Assembly (NCBI GenBank): GCA_947491475.1
Contig: CANLKN010000013.1
Coordinates: 1-52,724 of the forward strand
Reading direction: 5' to 3'
Source of the DNA: Akkermansiaceae bacterium
GTDB lineage: Bacteria; Verrucomicrobiota; Verrucomicrobiia; Verrucomicrobiales; Akkermansiaceae
Length of the DNA: 52,724 nt
The notes under the pieces were generated by a model, which was given only the letters and a program-made list of their open reading frames with translations, searched no databases and had not been told where the DNA came from. The position numbers and the translations under genes were made by a program. Shown here in pieces: positions 2,712-52,549 of this stretch (position 1 is the stretch's first letter; each line of letters begins with the position of its first letter).

Positions 2712-4166
2712 ATGAAACTTTTGACCATTCTGTTCATTCCTCTGCTGCTGGCAATGCCTTGCGCCGCGCTCGACCAAGCCGCCGTGACCACGGTTGCCGC
2801 CAGGTTCGCCAGCGAGTCGTATGACGATCAATTCAAAGCCCGCGCCGAGCTCGACGCATTGGTGGACACCGCCACCCTGCCGGACCGTGGCGACTTCGCC
2901 GCCGCCACGCGCACACTCTGCGCTGTGCTCAACGATGCCACCACCACCCGCGAGGCGAAAAAATACCTGCTGCGCGCCATGCGCCGCATCGTCACCGAAG
3001 ATGCCGTGGAAACCCTTACTTCGATTCTGAAGGGCGGCGACGCCATGCTCGCCGAGGAAGCCCGCCAGGTGCTCGAAGCGATCCCCTCCCCCGCCGCCAG
3101 TGCCGTGCTTGCCGAGGCTCTGCGCGCTGCCATCGATTTCCGCGCCAAAGCCGGTTTTGCCGACTCGCTCGCCCTGCAAGGCAGCGATGCCGCCATTGCG
3201 CCGCTTGCAGAGCTCCTGCAAGACCCCGACCCGCAACACGCCCGCATCGCAGCCGCCGCACTGGCCAAGCTCGGTGCCCGCGCCGTCGCACCCTTGAAGG
3301 AAGCGCTGGCTGGCGGCAAACTGCCTGCCGCAGCCGTGCCCGAGGTCGGGCGCGCCCTGCTAATTGCCAGCAGCGGTGATCCAAAAACCGCGGCAAAAAT
3401 TTTCCACGGCACTCAGGATTCCGTGCTCAAAACCGCCGCCTTTCTCAGCGCCACCGCCGGTGCTGAAAATCACGACGAGTTGATCGCCACCGCCGCGCGG
3501 AGCGAATCCGCCGCACTGCGCCACACCGCCTTGGCTCGCGGATTGGAGCAAAACAGCCCCGCCATCACCGGCACACTTGCCCAAGGGTTCGCCCAAATGC
3601 CTGCCGACGACCGACTGGTGGTGCTTGGCCACCTGCACTACTTCAAGGATGCGGCGGTTGCGGAAAAAATCGCACTTTCCGCGCTGGTGGCGGAATCCGT
3701 GGACGAGCGCATCGCCGCCCTTGCCGCTCTTGGCCGCATGCCCACCGCGGGTGCCATCCATGCCGCACTCGGTGCCTTATCAGCCCGCGAGCCGCGCATC
3801 AACCAGGCAGCCGCCATCGCACTGGCCGCCAATGCTTATCCAGAGGCCGATTCCGTCCTGCTTGCCAATCTCAAAGACGGCTCCGGTGATGCGCGGCTCG
3901 CCGCCATCAAGGCTGCTCCCATCCGGGCGATCCCGGGCGGCAATGCCATTCTGATCGAAATCCTCGCCGGCTCCGATGAAGAAGCCGCGCGCGAGGCACT
4001 CAAATCACTGTATTTCACCGCTTCCATCGACGACCTCCGCACTCTCTGCGCCAAGGCCACCACCACCGAGGAACCCCAGCGCAAGTCCCTTGTCGCCGCC
4101 TGCACCCGCATCGCCGGCCGCCTCGGCAGCGAGGAAGCCATGACATTGATCAAGCCGCTGCAGTGA
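2712..4166 (+). CDS. Exported HEAT-repeat protein
   Basis: The 484-residue product has signal peptide MKLLTILFIPLLLAMPCAAL followed almost entirely by paired helices rich in Ala, Leu, Asp and Glu. Repeating units such as AIAPLAELLQDPDPQHARIA and AAALAKLGARAVAPLKEAL are typical HEAT or PBS-lyase-type repeats. The start at 2712 is chosen because the upstream ATG at 2700 only adds MIPP before the signal. Such repeats make solenoid scaffolds for protein-protein contacts; no catalytic domain is visible. It follows the Tat oxidoreductase on the same strand and ends convergently with recA, 13 bp apart. Confidence 0.85.
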   Translation: MKLLTILFIPLLLAMPCAALDQAAVTTVAARFASESYDDQFKARAELDALVDTATLPDRGDFAAATRTLCAVLNDATTTREAKKYLLRAMRRIVTEDAVETLTSILKGGDAMLAEEARQVLEAIPSPAASAVLAEALRAAIDFRAKAGFADSLALQGSDAAIAPLAELLQDPDPQHARIAAAALAKLGARAVAPLKEALAGGKLPAAAVPEVGRALLIASSGDPKTAAKIFHGTQDSVLKTAAFLSATAGAENHDELIATAARSESAALRHTALARGLEQNSPAITGTLAQGFAQMPADDRLVVLGHLHYFKDAAVAEKIALSALVAESVDERIAALAALGRMPTAGAIHAALGALSAREPRINQAAAIALAANAYPEADSVLLANLKDGSGDARLAAIKAAPIRAIPGGNAILIEILAGSDEEAAREALKSLYFTASIDDLRTLCAKATTTEEPQRKSLVAACTRIAGRLGSEEAMTLIKPLQ

Positions 4167-31445: not shown

Positions 31446-32690
31446 ATGGACCTCCTCCGCTTCTCCACCGCCGGCTCCGTCGATGACGGCAAATCCACCC
31501 TCATCGGCCGTTTGTTATACGATTCCAAATCCATCTTCGAGGACCAACTCGAAGCCATGGAGGAATCTTCGCGCCGCCGCGGCGACGAAAACGTCAACCT
31601 CGCCCTTCTAACAGACGGCCTCAAGGCCGAGCGCGAACAGGGCATCACCATCGACGTCGCCTACCGCTACTTCGCCACGCCCAAACGCAAGTTCATCATT
31701 GCCGACACCCCCGGCCACATCCAATACACCCGCAACATGGTGACCGGCGCATCCACCGCCAACCTCGCCATCATCCTCATCGACGCACGCAAAGGCGTCA
31801 TCGAGCAGACCAAGCGCCACAGCTTCATCGCCAACCTGCTGCGCATCCAGCACCTCGTCGTCGCCGTCAACAAGATGGACCTAGTCGATTACTCAGAGGA
31901 GGTTTACAACCAGATCGTCAGCGATTTCCGCGACTTCGCCTCGCGCCTCGACAACATCGTCGAGATCACCGACATCCCGATCTCCGCACTCAACGGCGAC
32001 AATGTGGTCGAGAAATCCACCAACATGCCGTGGTATCAGGGCCCCACCTTCCTCTATCACCTCGAACACGTCTATGTCGGCGGCGAGGAAAACCACGTCG
32101 ATGCCCGCTTCCCCGTCCAGTGGGTGATCCGCCCGATGTCCGACGAATGGCATGACTTCCGCGGCTACGCCGGACGCGTCGCCGGCGGCGTCTTCAAGCC
32201 CGGCGATGAAGTCACCGTGCTGCCCTCCGGTTTCAAATCGGTCATCACGGCCATCCACACCGCCGACGGCGAGATCGAGGAAGCCTTCGCCCCGCAATCC
32301 GTCTGCCTCACCCTCGCCGATGAGATCGACATCTCGCGCGGCGACACCCTGGTCAAGGCCAACAACCCGCCAGCGGTAAGCCAGGACATCGAGGCGATGA
32401 TCTGCTGGTTCTCACCCAAGCCGATGGCCCACCGCGCCAAGCTCATCGTCCGCCACACCACTCAGGAAACCAAGGCCATCGTCCAGGAGGTCAAGTATCA
32501 CGTGGACATCAACACGCTCCACAAGATCGAAGGCGTGGACAGTTTTGAGATGAACGACATCGGCCGCATCACCATGCGCACCGCCGTGCCGCTCATCCAT
32601 GATGCCTACCGCCGCAACCGCAGCACTGGCTCCTTCGTCCTCATCGACCCCGGCACCAACGAAACCGTCGCTGCGGGAATGATCGTGTAG
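31446..32690 (+). CDS. cysN: Sulfate adenylyltransferase subunit 1 (GTPase)
   Basis: The 414-residue product starts MDLLRFSTAGSVDDGKSTLI with G1 GSVDDGKS (10-17). G2/switch region EREQGITIDVAYRYF, G3 DTPGH, G4 NKMD and G5 SALNG follow, then two beta-barrel domains. No APS-kinase fusion is present; CysC is separate at 27895. The GTPase couples GTP hydrolysis to APS formation by CysD. The gene is intact, ending VAAGMIV. A second copy of its last 100 bp occurs 804 bp downstream, beyond a vapBC-like module. Confidence 0.96.
   Translation: MDLLRFSTAGSVDDGKSTLIGRLLYDSKSIFEDQLEAMEESSRRRGDENVNLALLTDGLKAEREQGITIDVAYRYFATPKRKFIIADTPGHIQYTRNMVTGASTANLAIILIDARKGVIEQTKRHSFIANLLRIQHLVVAVNKMDLVDYSEEVYNQIVSDFRDFASRLDNIVEITDIPISALNGDNVVEKSTNMPWYQGPTFLYHLEHVYVGGEENHVDARFPVQWVIRPMSDEWHDFRGYAGRVAGGVFKPGDEVTVLPSGFKSVITAIHTADGEIEEAFAPQSVCLTLADEIDISRGDTLVKANNPPAVSQDIEAMICWFSPKPMAHRAKLIVRHTTQETKAIVQEVKYHVDINTLHKIEGVDSFEMNDIGRITMRTAVPLIHDAYRRNRSTGSFVLIDPGTNETVAAGMIV
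32587..32686 (+). repeat. cysN 3'-end direct repeat, left copy
   Basis: These 100 bp encode the last residues of CysN. They match 33391-33490 at 95 of 100 positions; all five differences (CGC/CGA, ACT/ACC, GCT/GCC, GCG/GCT, GGA/GGG) are third-position and synonymous. The repeats bracket the vapBC-like genes. Confidence 0.9.
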
Positions 32691-32760
32691 TGGTAAAAGC
32701 TGAAAGGCAGATGCCGCTTCCTCTGCTTGATTTTCGCGAAATCTCCCCCATACTAGCCGC

Positions 32761-32982
32761 ATGTCAAAAGCAGCATTGCTTCAGGCCAAGGCGGCAAATC
32801 TACCGGAGCCCATCGCGTCAGAGGTTCTGGACTTCCTCGAATTTGTGACAACCCGCCGAGAATTCGAAAGCCGACGCACTACCGGGACCATCCAACAATT
32901 CAGAGGAGCATTCAAAGGGCGGCTCAGCTCATCGGAAGAGTTTGCGGCCAACAAAACCAATGAAATCCGCTTGGAAAAATGA
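32761..32982 (+). CDS. VapB-like antitoxin (DUF2281-type)
   Basis: The 73-residue product MSKAALLQAKAANLPEPIAS then EVLDFLEFVTTRRE resembles small DUF2281/VapB-type antitoxins: a helical N-terminal part with LPEPIASEVLDFLEF and a polar C-terminal tail. It overlaps the PIN-domain toxin gene by 23 bp. It sits between the two copies of the cysN 3' end. Confidence 0.75.
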   Translation: MSKAALLQAKAANLPEPIASEVLDFLEFVTTRREFESRRTTGTIQQFRGAFKGRLSSSEEFAANKTNEIRLEK

Positions 32983-33385
32983 GCCATGCGTCATTCTCGA
33001 CGCATGTGCCCTGATTGCTTTTCTTAACGACGAACCGGGAGCGGATGTGGTGGCTTCGATATTTGAGACAGTCGCATCAGTTGAAATCTCGGCGATCAAT
33101 CTGCTTGAAATCGCATACGACGCGGTGCGCCGCACCGGTGACACCCAGACCGCTTATGATGTTCTTAATGCTGTCAACCAGCTTCCGCTGAAAATCCATT
33201 GGAGCATCAACGATGAGGTTTTTCTACAAGCCGCCGGTTTCAAAGCCGGTTACCGAATCTCTATTGCCGACGCCATCGCATTGGCAAGCGCCGCAGCGCG
33301 TGGCGCACCATTGGCAACGAGCGATCACCATGAGTTCGATCCGCTGGAGAAACAAGCGGCGGCGCGATTCATTTGGATCCGCTGA
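32960..33385 (+). CDS. vapC: VapC-like PIN-domain toxin
   Basis: The 141-residue product is called from ATG 32960 (MKSAWKNEPCVILDACALIAF); an in-frame ATG six codons earlier is possible. PIN acidic residues: D14 in VILDACALIAFLND, E in INLLEIAYD, then D in RISIADAIALASAA and D in PLATSDHHEF. These four bind Mg2+ in the RNase active site; VapC toxins cut tRNA or rRNA. It looks complete. Its stop at 33385 lies 5 bp before the right copy of the cysN repeat. Confidence 0.88.
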   Translation: MKSAWKNEPCVILDACALIAFLNDEPGADVVASIFETVASVEISAINLLEIAYDAVRRTGDTQTAYDVLNAVNQLPLKIHWSINDEVFLQAAGFKAGYRISIADAIALASAAARGAPLATSDHHEFDPLEKQAAARFIWIR

Positions 33386-33390
33386 AGCCC

Positions 33391-33490
33391 TGCCGCTCAT
33401 CCATGATGCCTACCGACGCAACCGCAGCACCGGCTCCTTCGTCCTCATCGACCCCGGCACCAACGAAACCGTCGCCGCTGGGATGATCGT
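33391..33490 (+). pseudogene. Displaced duplicate of the cysN 3' end
   Basis: The frame encodes ALPLIHDAYRRNRSTGSFVL then IDPGTNETVAAGMIV and a TGA at 33492-33494, identical in protein to the CysN C-terminus. No start precedes it; it would only be translated as a read-through of upstream sequence. Perfect protein conservation with only synonymous DNA change shows both copies diverged while under coding selection, as expected if one came from a related strain. Confidence 0.85.
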
Positions 33491-33523
33491 TTGAGCCATA
33501 ACCATGCAGTAGGATAGCAAACC

Positions 33524-33661
33524 GTGGCGCGGGCGTCTCGCCCGCCGCCATATCAAGCCAGCGGCTGCACGCCAAAAAATCCACAGCAATGGGTATGTAA
33601 GGCATCTTCTGGCAAGTAGCAGGGATTTTCAGAAAGGCGGCGGGCGAGACTCCCGCGCCAC
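33524..33661. repeat. Inverted REP-like pair, GTGGCGCGGG type, copies 2 and 3
   Basis: The plus copy at 33524-33549 has stem GCGGGCG, loop TCT, stem CGCCCGC. The inverted copy at 33636-33661 has one stem mismatch. They differ from copy 1 (11488-11513) at only one or two bases. Head-to-head arrangement 86 bp apart resembles a REPIN. Confidence 0.7.
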
Positions 33662-47577: not shown

Positions 47578-49113
47578 ATGACCCACCACCCTACGACAAC
47601 ATTCCAGAAAAATCCGATCTGGCTCCTGATTTTCGTGCTTATGGCAGCTGTCATTGCATTCTCCTTGATTTCCGCGTGGAAAGGTTATCCACCGTATCGG
47701 GATATTCACCTTGGAACCGCCATCGAGTATTCCAAATCCTCGATCAGTCTGAAGAACACCCAGATCGTGGGATTCAATGCGAACGAAACCCCCACCATCC
47801 AGGAATTTCCCATTTGGCAAACGCTGGTCGCACTAACCTTCAATGCATTCGGTCCATGGTGGGGATGGGCGAACGTGGTCTCAATCCTGATCTTTACCAC
47901 CTCACTGTTCCCATTGTACCAGTTGGGAAAGGCGCTGATGGGGCCACGGGGCGGCGCATGGACCCTGGTGTTCTTTTTATGCCAACCATTGGTGTTCCGC
48001 TATTATGGCCTTGCGAGTACTGACGGGGCTTCCATCACAGCTGCAATCTGGTTTTGTTATCTGGGCTTCGAACTCCTTTGCTTGGAAAAGTTCTCAGTCT
48101 GGTGGTGGTTGGGCGCATTTGTGGCGGGAACCATGACGGCGCTGTTGAAACTCCCGTTTTTCATGGCCGTCGGCATCGGACTCTTCTTGTTCCAGCTTAT
48201 GAGCCGTCCGCGGGCCTTGAAGCCGATGGTGGCCCTGGCTTCTATTGGAATCTGCGTCTCCACCGTGTTTCTGGGGTGGACCGCCTACACGGGCCATCTA
48301 CAGGCCAATGCGCTGTTTCCATTCGTGGACCTGCGCCTGTCCAACCCGGAAATGAAGTTCTGGTACTTCGGTGATTGGAACTACCGGCTGAACCCAGCAA
48401 ACTGGATCAAGGGAGGATGGAGGATCATGAACACCCTCTTTGGCAGTTTTGTCCTGGTGGGCCTTGCTGCCATTGGCATCTGGAAAAACAGCCCCTTGCG
48501 GCTTCCCGTGTGCCTCCTTCTCGGTGGTGGCATCACCACCCTGGTGTTCAGCCACCTTGTCCTTCATCACAGCCACTATTACCTGATGTTTTCACCCGCA
48601 GTGGCCCTGCTCAGTGCGAATGGGCTCCTGTGGGTCGCAGACGCACTCCGGATGGAGCGCCGCGGTGAGTGGCTATTCACAGGCTTTGCTGGTGCCCTTC
48701 TCTCTCTATCTCTGGTCCAGGGCATGATTGGAATGAAAATCACGACTGCTTTTGATCCTTACTACCGAAACATCGCCCGTATTGTAGAGGAACATACAAC
48801 CTCACAAGACAAAATCTTAATCCAAGGCGGTGGCTGGGGGGGCGACATCCTAATCCGTGCCCAAAGGTCAGGCCTCTCTATTTGGACTACCGAAGTCCTG
48901 GAAGATGACCCGAATTTCAGACAGCTCAAAAATTTGGGCTACAACAAACTTGTCATGATCAGCGAGTCGCCACTGCTTCACTCCGTTCAAGTGATCAACC
49001 CGGGTTCAGCAGGTAGGAAGCGAAAGACTTACCATGAGAACCGAACGCCGATCGTCACGAATTGGAAGGAACTTTATTCGGACGAAAATATTGTCATACA
49101 GGAAATCCCATGA
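47578..49113 (+). CDS. GT39/ArnT-like membrane glycosyltransferase
   Basis: The 511-residue product has ~10-11 membrane segments after WLLIFVLMAAVIAFSLISAW. The first periplasmic loop PPYRDIHLGTAIEYSKS contains the acidic residue region typical of GT-C enzymes using polyprenyl-phosphate sugars, and NETPTIQEFPIWQTLVAL and YYGLASTDGASI follow. The soluble C-terminal part (~370-511) is periplasmic. It would transfer a sugar from a lipid carrier made by the preceding GT2 to the glycan or a protein. Confidence 0.75.
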   Translation: MTHHPTTTFQKNPIWLLIFVLMAAVIAFSLISAWKGYPPYRDIHLGTAIEYSKSSISLKNTQIVGFNANETPTIQEFPIWQTLVALTFNAFGPWWGWANVVSILIFTTSLFPLYQLGKALMGPRGGAWTLVFFLCQPLVFRYYGLASTDGASITAAIWFCYLGFELLCLEKFSVWWWLGAFVAGTMTALLKLPFFMAVGIGLFLFQLMSRPRALKPMVALASIGICVSTVFLGWTAYTGHLQANALFPFVDLRLSNPEMKFWYFGDWNYRLNPANWIKGGWRIMNTLFGSFVLVGLAAIGIWKNSPLRLPVCLLLGGGITTLVFSHLVLHHSHYYLMFSPAVALLSANGLLWVADALRMERRGEWLFTGFAGALLSLSLVQGMIGMKITTAFDPYYRNIARIVEEHTTSQDKILIQGGGWGGDILIRAQRSGLSIWTTEVLEDDPNFRQLKNLGYNKLVMISESPLLHSVQVINPGSAGRKRKTYHENRTPIVTNWKELYSDENIVIQEIP

Positions 49114-49615
49114 AGGGTTCATGCTTGTAAATTAATTCGTGAACAGTTTGTTCACAGGCCGATATTCATCATGTTTCTTCGCTCCGAGCGGCATAGCCAG
49201 ACTGTCTCTTTCATCCGGTTGGCCCGAATTACCTAATGGCATATCGACAATCTCCACCAAAGATATCTGGGCCAATTCTCCGAACCATCATGCGGCGTTT
49301 CCTAATTTTGTCCTAGCGCATAGTTTCTTATTCGCACCATCGAGCAAGTGGAAAACGGTTATTACAGCCCAGATCGCCCAGTAGACCTCCTCGGCAACAC
49401 TTCCTTCAAAAACGCCATCAAAGAAAACACCACAAGGAGCTTGATATGTGCGGGGCCGCCGGAACCCAGCCAGCAGAGCATACACAGCGTAACTTACCAC
49501 ACCAGCATTGTGCCCGTTACTCGGTAAACATCCACAGACTTTGTGGGTCCACGAACAGCTGGCGCGAGCAAGCGAACTCCTATTATGAAACAAAACCGCC
49601 CACCTGAATATGAAA
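49114..49615. other. ~500-bp gap without a supported gene
   Basis: Lower-GC stretch with only short, unrecognisable open frames on either strand. It opens with a perfect palindrome GTGAACA-GTT-TGTTCAC (49139-49155), which has no T-tract and the wrong geometry for LexA. It may contain decayed sequence, but no protein relationship was seen. Confidence 0.5.
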
Positions 49616-50279
49616 ATGATTTCATTTGTTGAGAGGGATTCCCACATTGTGGAAATCGTTTATGGTAAGAGCGTGCTTCACTTGGGTTGCGTGGGCTTTA
49701 CCGACGGAACCCCCGGAGGAGAAGATTACGATGGCGCAAAAGAGCCTACATGCCGCCCTCACTGAAGCGGCAAGCGTATGCACGGGGGTTGACCTAGATG
49801 GTGAGGCAATCAGCGAGTTGCGAAATTTAGGGATCTTCACCAATGTTGTTGAAGGCGATGTTGAGCGCTTGTCCGAACTGGGAAGTGACTTGGGAAGATA
49901 CGACCTAGTGGTGGCCGGTGACATCATTGAACATGTTTCCAACCCGGGTCTAATGCTCGACGGCATCAAGGACCGTTTGAATAAGGATGGGAGATTGATC
50001 GTATCTACACCCAACGCCTTCGGGATCGCTTCATGGATCAAGTATGCCCGGGGAAAATTCCGCGAAGGCGCGCAGCACGTCTTATGCTTCAATCCAATCA
50101 CCCTCCGGCAACTGCTGGAACGCCATGGATACGAAGTCACGGAGGCTTTATCCTGTTACCAATCCAGAGCGGTCGACCAGTATGGCGCGAGCTTTCGGCT
50201 ATTACGCCTGATTTTGGAGAAACAACCCCGCTTCGGCGGTACACTGCTATTTGTGTGCCGAGTCAGGCAGGGTCCGTGA
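49616..50279 (+). pseudogene. SAM methyltransferase broken by a 1-nt insertion in a C5 run
   Basis: From ATG 49616 one frame reads MISFVERDSHIVEIVYGKSV then LHLGCVGFTDGTP, then terminates at 49763-49765. The next frame continues from EEKITMAQKSLHAALTEA through VTGVDLDGEA-like, VVAGDIIEHVSNPGLMLDGI and a full C-terminal half to 50279. Removing one C from CCCCC at 49710-49714 joins them into a standard methyltransferase of this type. Causes to separate: real frameshift, phase variation at the homopolymer, or a sequencing error. A downstream ATG (49731, MAQKSLHAAL) could still start the C-terminal part. Confidence 0.75.
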
Positions 50280-50300
50280 CAACCCGCCAGAAAGCCGCAA

Positions 50301-51281
50301 ATGCCCGGAAAAACAGTCAGCAATCAATGCGATGACGTTCGACGTGTCTCCACTCCAGCGTATTTCCTTGATCGCTACTGGCGGGCGCTAGAAGAGCAGG
50401 GTTGGGAGGCAATTGTCTTGCACTCCTGGCGGGACCTTCCTCAACGGATCGATTCCGATATCGACTATGCGGTGCGCGGACCGACTCCAGGTGATTTGAT
50501 GAGGTTTCTGTTTCAGTTCTCCCGCAGGCATGGCTGGCACATGGTACAGGCGATCGAACATGAGCCCGGAGCAATCTTCTGCGTCTGCCAGCAGGCCGCC
50601 CCCCCGTTTGAGGCCTTGCAACTTGACGTGACCTGGAGCTACCGGCGGCGAGGTCATGTATTGTTGTCTGCGGAGTTGCTTTTTGAAAATAACAGAACGA
50701 TTCCCGGGAAGGTATTCCGGGTTCCCTCACCCGGGTCGGAGTTCATCTACTTACTAGCCAAAGCTGCGGCGAAGGGAAAGGACTTCGGAAGAGTAGAGCA
50801 ACGGTTGGACGAGTTGCTGCACGAGGATGCAGAGGGATGCCACTCCATCGCTGGGCGCGCATTCGGCGAGGTGCCTCCTGCGGATTCCCGGATCCAATCT
50901 TGGGAAATGTGGTTGGGTGCGACGTCGGCTTTCAAACCTGTCAGGCGTGGACGCAAGTTTGGCATTGGGGAACTCGGGCTCTACTTGCGGAGGATTTTTC
51001 GTCCGACAGGATTTTATCTAATAGTGGGACCTGACCCTTATAACAGGGATGTCGAGTATGTGGTAAAAAACCTACTTCCTTCGTTCCGAGAATGGATTGT
51101 GATCACGGATGCGGGTCTCCGTAACTACGTGCGTCGGAAGGTGGCGCTGGTGCGCACTCACCTCGTGATTAATGTGACGACCACCCCTCGATACAAGCCG
51201 AGCCCGGACGCAATAGTCGCTAGGGCGTTGGAAACACTGGCGTCGAGACTGGACAAGAGGCTGGCAAAGACAAGGGAATGA
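50301..51281 (+). CDS. Nucleotidyltransferase-like protein fused to a degenerate kinase-like domain
   Basis: The 326-residue product has WEAIVLHSWRDLPQRIDSDI then DYAVRG (residues ~34-60), which resembles the nucleotidyltransferase core (G/R-S-D-x-D). The C-terminal third has GFYLIVGPDPYNRDVEYVV, in the place where thymidylate-kinase-like partners of this protein type have a GPDGxGKST P-loop; here the Lys/Ser are lost. So the kinase part appears dead or adapted. Proteins of this build occur in surface-polysaccharide loci; function is not assigned. Its end overlaps the next gene (ATGATG). Confidence 0.5.
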   Translation: MPGKTVSNQCDDVRRVSTPAYFLDRYWRALEEQGWEAIVLHSWRDLPQRIDSDIDYAVRGPTPGDLMRFLFQFSRRHGWHMVQAIEHEPGAIFCVCQQAAPPFEALQLDVTWSYRRRGHVLLSAELLFENNRTIPGKVFRVPSPGSEFIYLLAKAAAKGKDFGRVEQRLDELLHEDAEGCHSIAGRAFGEVPPADSRIQSWEMWLGATSAFKPVRRGRKFGIGELGLYLRRIFRPTGFYLIVGPDPYNRDVEYVVKNLLPSFREWIVITDAGLRNYVRRKVALVRTHLVINVTTTPRYKPSPDAIVARALETLASRLDKRLAKTRE

Positions 51282-52549
51282 TGAAGGAGATAACAAAATA
51301 CATTGAGGAAAACAAAGTGAATAACGGTCGTCTGAATGTATTGCTCATCGCCTACGCTTGCGAGCCCGGACGTGGCTCCGAACCTGGCACCGGTTGGAAT
51401 ATGGCGATGGGCCTTGCAACGCGCCATGACCTAACAGTTGCAACCCGCGCCAATAACCGTGCCCGAATCGAGGATGAGCTACAGAAGGTCGCTCCCGCCA
51501 ATCCTCCCCGTTTCCTCTATATCGACCCTCCCCAATGGACCTTACGCCTCAAGGCCCGGGGCCTGATGCCAATCCAGATCTTCTATTACTTATGGCAGCG
51601 GGAACTGGCCACATGGCTCCGGAAAGCAAATGACAATTTTGACATCATTCACCAACTCACCTTCAATTCATTCGAAGTCCCCCCTCTGGATTTCTTCCAC
51701 TTGAAAGGAGCTAAAGTATGGGGGCCAATCGGGGGTGGGCAGACGGTTCCAAGTGAAATGCTACGCGCTTTCGGACCCGGAGGCTCGCGCAGCGAAACTT
51801 TACGAAATGGCAGAGTGAGACTTTCCGCTAAGAGTCCATGGGTCCGGCGCACTTTGGCCAATGCAGATTTGGTTCTGTTTGCAAACAACGAAACACACGG
51901 CTTGCTTGCTCCGGAATGCAAAGGGAAGTGCGAAATGATGATCGATGTTGGAGTGGATCTGCGGAAATTCAAACCGGAAAGAAAAGCAAAACGATCTGAT
52001 CAGGTTACATTCCTAGCAGCAGGACGTTTGGAGGCCCGTAAGGGTATCATTCTTCTTCTGGAGTCCTTCGCCGCATTCGCGAAAGGTCACCAGGGATCGG
52101 ATTTGCGCATCGTAGGAGATGGCCCTGAGATGGCTCGCATCAAGCAAGCCATTGCGGCACTCGGCCTGTCCGGGCGCGTAATCCTGTCTGGCGCAGTCAG
52201 CCACGATGCGATGCAGCGTGAATTTGAATCGGCTGATGTGTTCGTATTCCCAAGCCTACGGGATACTTCAGGCGCGGTGGTCCTGGAAGCCATGGCAATG
52301 GAATTACCCGTCATCTGCTTTGACCACCAAGGCACGGCGCTAATGGTGCCGCTCGATTGCGGGATCAGAATCCCAATCAGTTCCTTCGATAAGACTGTTG
52401 CGCTATTCCGGGCTGCTTTGACTAGAATGGCTGGCGACACCGAGTTGCGCCGACTATATGGTTCCCGGGGCCGTCAGGTAGTCGCTTCAAACTATGACTG
52501 GAGTGTCAAAGTCGCGAGAATTGACAAGTTCTACCGGGAAATCAGTTGA
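51278..52549 (+). CDS. GT4-family glycosyltransferase
   Basis: The 423-residue product is GT-B: N-terminal LNVLLIAYACEPGRGSEPGTGW with the glycine loop, central LFANNETHGLL, and C-terminal VTFLAAGRLEARKGIILLLE, LRIVGDGPEM and FVFPSLRDTSGAVVLEAMAM with an E-type nucleotide-sugar site. The first Glu of E-x7-E is replaced by a Ser/Asp region (SLRDTSGAVVLE), a variant known in GT4. It starts within the stop codon of the upstream gene. Confidence 0.87.
   Translation: MMKEITKYIEENKVNNGRLNVLLIAYACEPGRGSEPGTGWNMAMGLATRHDLTVATRANNRARIEDELQKVAPANPPRFLYIDPPQWTLRLKARGLMPIQIFYYLWQRELATWLRKANDNFDIIHQLTFNSFEVPPLDFFHLKGAKVWGPIGGGQTVPSEMLRAFGPGGSRSETLRNGRVRLSAKSPWVRRTLANADLVLFANNETHGLLAPECKGKCEMMIDVGVDLRKFKPERKAKRSDQVTFLAAGRLEARKGIILLLESFAAFAKGHQGSDLRIVGDGPEMARIKQAIAALGLSGRVILSGAVSHDAMQREFESADVFVFPSLRDTSGAVVLEAMAMELPVICFDHQGTALMVPLDCGIRIPISSFDKTVALFRAALTRMAGDTELRRLYGSRGRQVVASNYDWSVKVARIDKFYREIS

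What the first reader, a model, noticed from the sequence alone, without database searches (positions are those of the whole stretch)
49616..50279. Methyltransferase split by one base in a C5 run
Deleting one C at 49710-49714 fuses two open frames into a normal methyltransferase. A short homopolymer inside a surface-glycan gene could be a phase-variable switch, a true inactivation or an assembly error.
Basis: partly seen in the sequence, partly recalled or inferred. Interest (0 to 1): 0.5.

Follow-up and report, generated by a model that had tools for sequence, protein, structure and literature searches.

The report
Frameshifted sugar-cluster methyltransferase gene
A methyltransferase gene in a surface-sugar gene cluster is broken by a one-base frameshift, most simply a recent loss of a dispensable gene or an error in the assembly, and nothing beyond its short C run suggests an on/off switch.

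Summary
Two overlapping + strand frames (N part from 49610, C part to 50279) together encode one class I SAM-dependent methyltransferase. Intact relatives from the same genus pin the one-base shift to 49706-49715, ten bases that hold the C5 run. The C part lacks SAM-binding motif I and the N part ends 48 bases after the run, so the gene as written is very probably a null. Intact copies exist in 3 of the 72 other genomes of the genus (4 loci). The relative with the closest neighbour gene has no such methyltransferase, so the gene is accessory. A 353 kb sample of the same assembly holds at least four other apparently broken genes, including a GH3 xylosidase. Phase variation is unsupported: the run is 5 bases, one of 26 exact C5/G5 runs in the window, below the 6-base cut-off of one published survey. 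Programmed frameshifting is unsupported because relatives read through in one frame. A real recent mutation and a consensus error cannot be separated without reads. Ordinary.

The parts
49610..49765 (+). N-terminal part of the methyltransferase (51 codons and stop); carries motif I (VLHLGCVG), out of frame after the shift
49706..49715 (+). interval that must contain the one-base frame shift
49710..49714 (+). C5 run, likely site of the indel
49715..49721 (+). GGAGGAG, Shine-Dalgarno-like, 9 bases before in-frame ATG 49731 (possible internal start; the close relatives have no Met at that place)
   Evidence: inference
49731..50279 (+). C-terminal part of the methyltransferase (182 codons from the internal ATG; frame open from 49626), PF13489 profile positions 45-163
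47578..49113 (+). upstream gene, weak PMT_2 (mannosyltransferase-like) match
   Evidence: 22.2 bits, below cut-off 26.1
49114..49609 (.). 496-base gap without a long ORF, in an otherwise tightly packed gene row
50301..51281 (+). conserved neighbour of unknown family (326 aa); homologues sit beside the methyltransferase in G081 and G020
51278..52549 (+). GT4 glycosyltransferase of the same cassette

Best explanation
A class I SAM-dependent methyltransferase gene of a surface-glycan cluster (inferred: it methylates a sugar or glycan precursor) has suffered a real, recent one-base insertion, most likely by replication slippage in a short C run. Ribosomes starting at 49610 make a 51-residue peptide. 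Any product from the internal ATG lacks motif I and should not bind SAM. The gene is an accessory one, so its loss is tolerated. Shown: the split, its place, intact relatives, presence and absence among relatives. Inferred: that the extra base is real in the cell, that it is recent, and that it abolishes activity.
For: Both halves are conserved and colinear with intact relatives. The residues invariant in the 8-row alignment are all still present across the two halves and there is only one disruption, which suggests youth (that alignment includes the read-through protein itself). Intact homologues are in 3 of the 72 other genus genomes. G079, whose neighbour protein is the closest (46%), has no methyltransferase match at E<=1e-12 and none between its cassette genes. 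The only other match in the own genome is 27% identical, so there is no close paralogue.
Against: No second strain or read set was available, so the reality of the extra base is not shown. The assembly has other broken genes, which would also fit a consensus-error source. The sequencing method of the assembly is unknown to me.
Confidence: 0.53

Rival explanations
1. Consensus or assembly error: the cell carries an intact gene and the extra base arose in sequencing or in collapsing strains.
For: The rest of the gene is intact and conserved. In 15 other 20-kb stretches of the same assembly plus the window, a coding-frame scan found 5 frame changes in 4 genes that look broken, one of them a GH3 xylosidase whose two frames match profile positions 5-558 and 576-838 of 846. 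With 182 contigs, the longest seen 73.9 kb, this is a draft assembly.
Against: A 5-base run is short for an indel error in short-read data (recalled, not tested). 20 C/G runs of 5-7 lie well inside 22 long open ORFs of the window, though choosing long ORFs favours intact ones. The other broken genes do not sit at obvious long homopolymers, so they do not point to homopolymer error.
Confidence: 0.35
2. Phase-variable switch: the C run gains and loses a base at high rate, turning a methyl mark on and off.
For: A C run at the break in a surface-glycan gene, the classic gene class. One published survey mentions a meningococcal C tract that alternates between C5 and C6 among strains (PMC5084427, passage).
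Against: The run of 5 is under the cut-off of 6 used for homopolymers in that survey; another survey called strong candidates at tracts above 9, or with frameshifts, or both (PMC2823697, passage). C5/G5 runs are common here (26 in the window).
Confidence: 0.07
3. Programmed +1 ribosomal frameshift at CCC, giving some full-length enzyme.
For: CCC codons have been studied as +1 frameshift sites in Salmonella-type his-operon test systems (PMC3617221, passages), and GGAGGAG lies next to the site.
Against: The close relatives (L003, L025, L027) read the same stretch in one frame, so the site is not conserved. No stop codon follows directly (the N frame runs on 48 bases), and the SD-like site is downstream, not upstream.
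Confidence: 0.02
4. Two-part or truncated functional protein: re-initiation at ATG 49731 makes a 182-residue protein with a function of its own.
For: ATG 49731 has GGAGGAG 9 bases upstream.
Against: The product lacks the motif I stretch that all seven other rows of the alignment carry; the close relatives have no Met at that place, so the start is not conserved.
Confidence: 0.03

Closest known systems
Class I SAM-dependent methyltransferases, Pfam Methyltransf_23 (PF13489)
   Same: C part scores 54.5 bits against a cut-off of 27; motif I is in the N part; solved relatives such as 3cc8 match a profile of the family
   Different: not encoded in one frame in this assembly
Frameshift pseudogenes in surface-polysaccharide clusters (kind named from general knowledge)
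   Same: single indel in an accessory gene, otherwise intact
   Different: whether the indel is real here is untested
Homopolymer phase-variable surface genes (e.g. Neisseria, Helicobacter)
   Same: C run at the frame break of a surface-glycan gene
   Different: tract shorter than survey cut-offs and not special for this genome; length variation not testable

Membership tests
Class I SAM-dependent methyltransferase (PF13489) | profile match above cut-off | tested here: met
   C part 54.5 bits vs 27, profile 45-163 of 164
Class I SAM-dependent methyltransferase (PF13489) | motif I (SAM loop) at the N terminus | tested here: met
   present, but in the other frame: L23 G26 C27 invariant in 8 rows
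Class I SAM-dependent methyltransferase (PF13489) | one continuous reading frame | tested here: not met
   stop after 51 codons; frame change in 49706-49715
Phase-variable gene with a homopolymer tract | tract at or above lengths used in surveys (6 or more; above 9 for strong candidates) | tested here: not met
   tract of 5 against passages
Phase-variable gene with a homopolymer tract | tract length varies within a clone or between strains | not testable with these tools
   no reads; best relative outside the own genome is 47% identical in protein
Programmed +1 frameshift gene | shift site conserved among relatives | tested here: not met
   L003, L025, L027 read through in one frame
Frameshift pseudogene | intact homologues exist and this copy has a disrupting indel | tested here: met
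Frameshift pseudogene | indel present in the cell, not only in the assembly | not testable with these tools
   needs reads or resequencing

The most novel reading that the evidence does not exclude
An unusually short C5 tract acts as a slow reversible switch for a glycan methyl mark in an environmental bacterium.
Probability: 0.05. Interest if true: 0.4.

Novelty: already known. Interest (0 to 1): 0.08.

Why it matters
It matters little beyond annotation: a single split gene in a draft assembly should be flagged as a likely pseudogene or consensus error, not as a switch. If the extra base is real, it is one more case of an accessory glycan-decorating gene being lost.

Tried and rejected
Looked for a remnant gene in the 496-base gap upstream: six-frame tblastn against 40 loci and the rest of the window showed nothing better than E 0.67 in the output I printed, which was cut at 3000 characters; Rfam gave only chance-level hits, E 3.6 and 4.2. 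Looked for repeats that might mediate recombination at the break: one 13-base pair 851 bases apart and one palindrome, neither at the break. No sigma-70-like promoter was found in 49000-50400. Looked for copies with exact DNA flanks in viral contigs: 0 matches for each of two patterns. The coding-frame scan called 92 frame changes in 353 kb; one search set aside 59 as gene junctions and dropped 20 with under 200 bases of open frame on a side, leaving 13; I looked at 10 of the 13 and judged 5 (in 4 genes) as breaks and the other 5 as gene junctions, spurious or unclear; 3 were not looked at. The scan missed the methyltransferase break itself, so its count is a lower bound. A paper search for frameshifts and homopolymer errors in metagenome-assembled genomes with all five terms found 0.

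Full report
What is there. The C5 run is at 49710-49714. The frame from ATG 49610 codes MKMISFVERDSHIVEIVYGKSVLHLGCVGFTD and ends at a stop after 51 codons. The next frame, open from 49626, codes the rest of a methyltransferase to 50279; from its internal ATG at 49731 it matches PF13489 at 54.5 bits, profile positions 45-163.

Relatives. In 73 genomes of the genus, 4 including the window's own matched at E<=1e-12, giving 5 places: the window, two in G081 (47% and 44%), one in G020 (44%) and a weaker one in G073 (33%). Each of the four relatives is a single open frame in the ORF lists. A scan of named genomes gave 4 loci: L019, from a Chromatiaceae MAG, is a clear single-frame relative; L020 is a more distant methyltransferase-like protein; L021 and L022 look like chance matches to other proteins. 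Four plasmid records matched at 30-37% identity; two of them (L023, L024) were taken into the alignment.

Where the break is. The N frame matches L027 residues 8-34 and the C frame L027 residues 36-216. Read through, the protein aligns to L027 (91/216 identical) and to L025 (96/216) with no gap at the junction. The shift is therefore in the ten bases 49706-49715, which contain the C run. A random 10-base interval holds a full C/G run of 5 or more at 0.37% of positions, a figure computed after seeing the site.

What it does to the gene. Motif I, the SAM loop (invariant L, G and C in 8 rows), is in the N part; the C part has the rest of the fold. From established knowledge of class I methyltransferases neither part should be active alone. 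This was not tested.

Setting. In G081 and G020 the methyltransferase follows a homologue of the 326-aa neighbour and precedes a GT4-like ORF (in one G081 copy a small P-loop-kinase-like ORF, named by eye, lies between). In the window the order is methyltransferase, 326-aa gene, GT4. G079, which has the closest 326-aa homologue (46%), shows a row of transferase-like, kinase-like, 326-like and GT4-like ORFs (names by eye) with no methyltransferase, and had no hit. So the gene is an accessory piece that changes place and is often missing.

Is the assembly prone to this? A coding-frame scan of the window and 15 further 20-kb stretches called 92 frame changes; after removing junction-like cases (59) and short ones (20), 13 remained; 10 were inspected and 5, in 4 genes, look like breaks. 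The clearest is a GH3 xylosidase in L038, whose two frames match NF041776 at 5-558 and 576-838 of 846. A reverse-transcriptase gene in L042 lacks the middle of its profile (matches 32-99 and 209-303 of 353), an autotransporter-repeat ORF in L033 changes frame twice, and an ORF in L038 with a weak Verru_Chthon_A match (21.3 bits against a cut-off of 332.3) changes frame once. These breaks do not lie at obvious long homopolymers. Broken genes, real or not, are thus not rare in this assembly. The scan missed the methyltransferase break itself, so the count is a lower bound.

Switch or not. The run is short, C5 and G5 runs are common (13 each in the window, 81 and 114 in the 353 kb), and 20 C/G runs of 5-7 sit well inside 22 long ORFs that stay open (long ORFs were chosen, which favours this result). 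A meningococcal survey used a cut-off of 6 for homopolymers and noted one C tract that alternates between 5 and 6 (PMC5084427, passages read), so a short tract is not impossible. A Helicobacter canadensis survey called strong candidates at tracts above 9, with frameshifts, or both (PMC2823697, passages read). Programmed frameshifting is not supported because relatives read this stretch in one frame.

Verdict. A confirmed single-base frameshift in an accessory glycan-cluster methyltransferase: real recent inactivation (about 0.53) or consensus error (about 0.35). Ordinary.

Noticed in passing
L038 13760-16392 (own genome, contig C11): A GH3 beta-xylosidase-like gene is split by a frame change between profile positions 558 and 576 of NF041776.
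   Followed up: partly
L042 155-1712 (own genome, contig C16): By eye an Avd-like ORF, HicB/HicA-like ORFs and a reverse transcriptase that lacks its middle part; looks like the remains of a diversity-generating retroelement or similar RT element (names by eye except the RT match).
   Followed up: partly
window 33369-33605: What looks like a short copy of the end of the CysN-like gene (31446-32690) follows a small ORF at 32942-33385; minus-strand readings at 32412-32762 and 33369-33605 share DGFVGAGVDEDEGA and GIMDER.
   Followed up: no
window 49114-49609: 496 bases without a long ORF or detectable relative, directly before the broken gene, in a row where the neighbouring gaps are about 12-30 bases.
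   Followed up: partly
window 50301-51281: 326-aa protein without Pfam or NCBIfam match, found in 6 of 73 genus genomes including the own one; by eye the relatives carry a GG..SDVD stretch like that of nucleotidyltransferases.
   Followed up: partly
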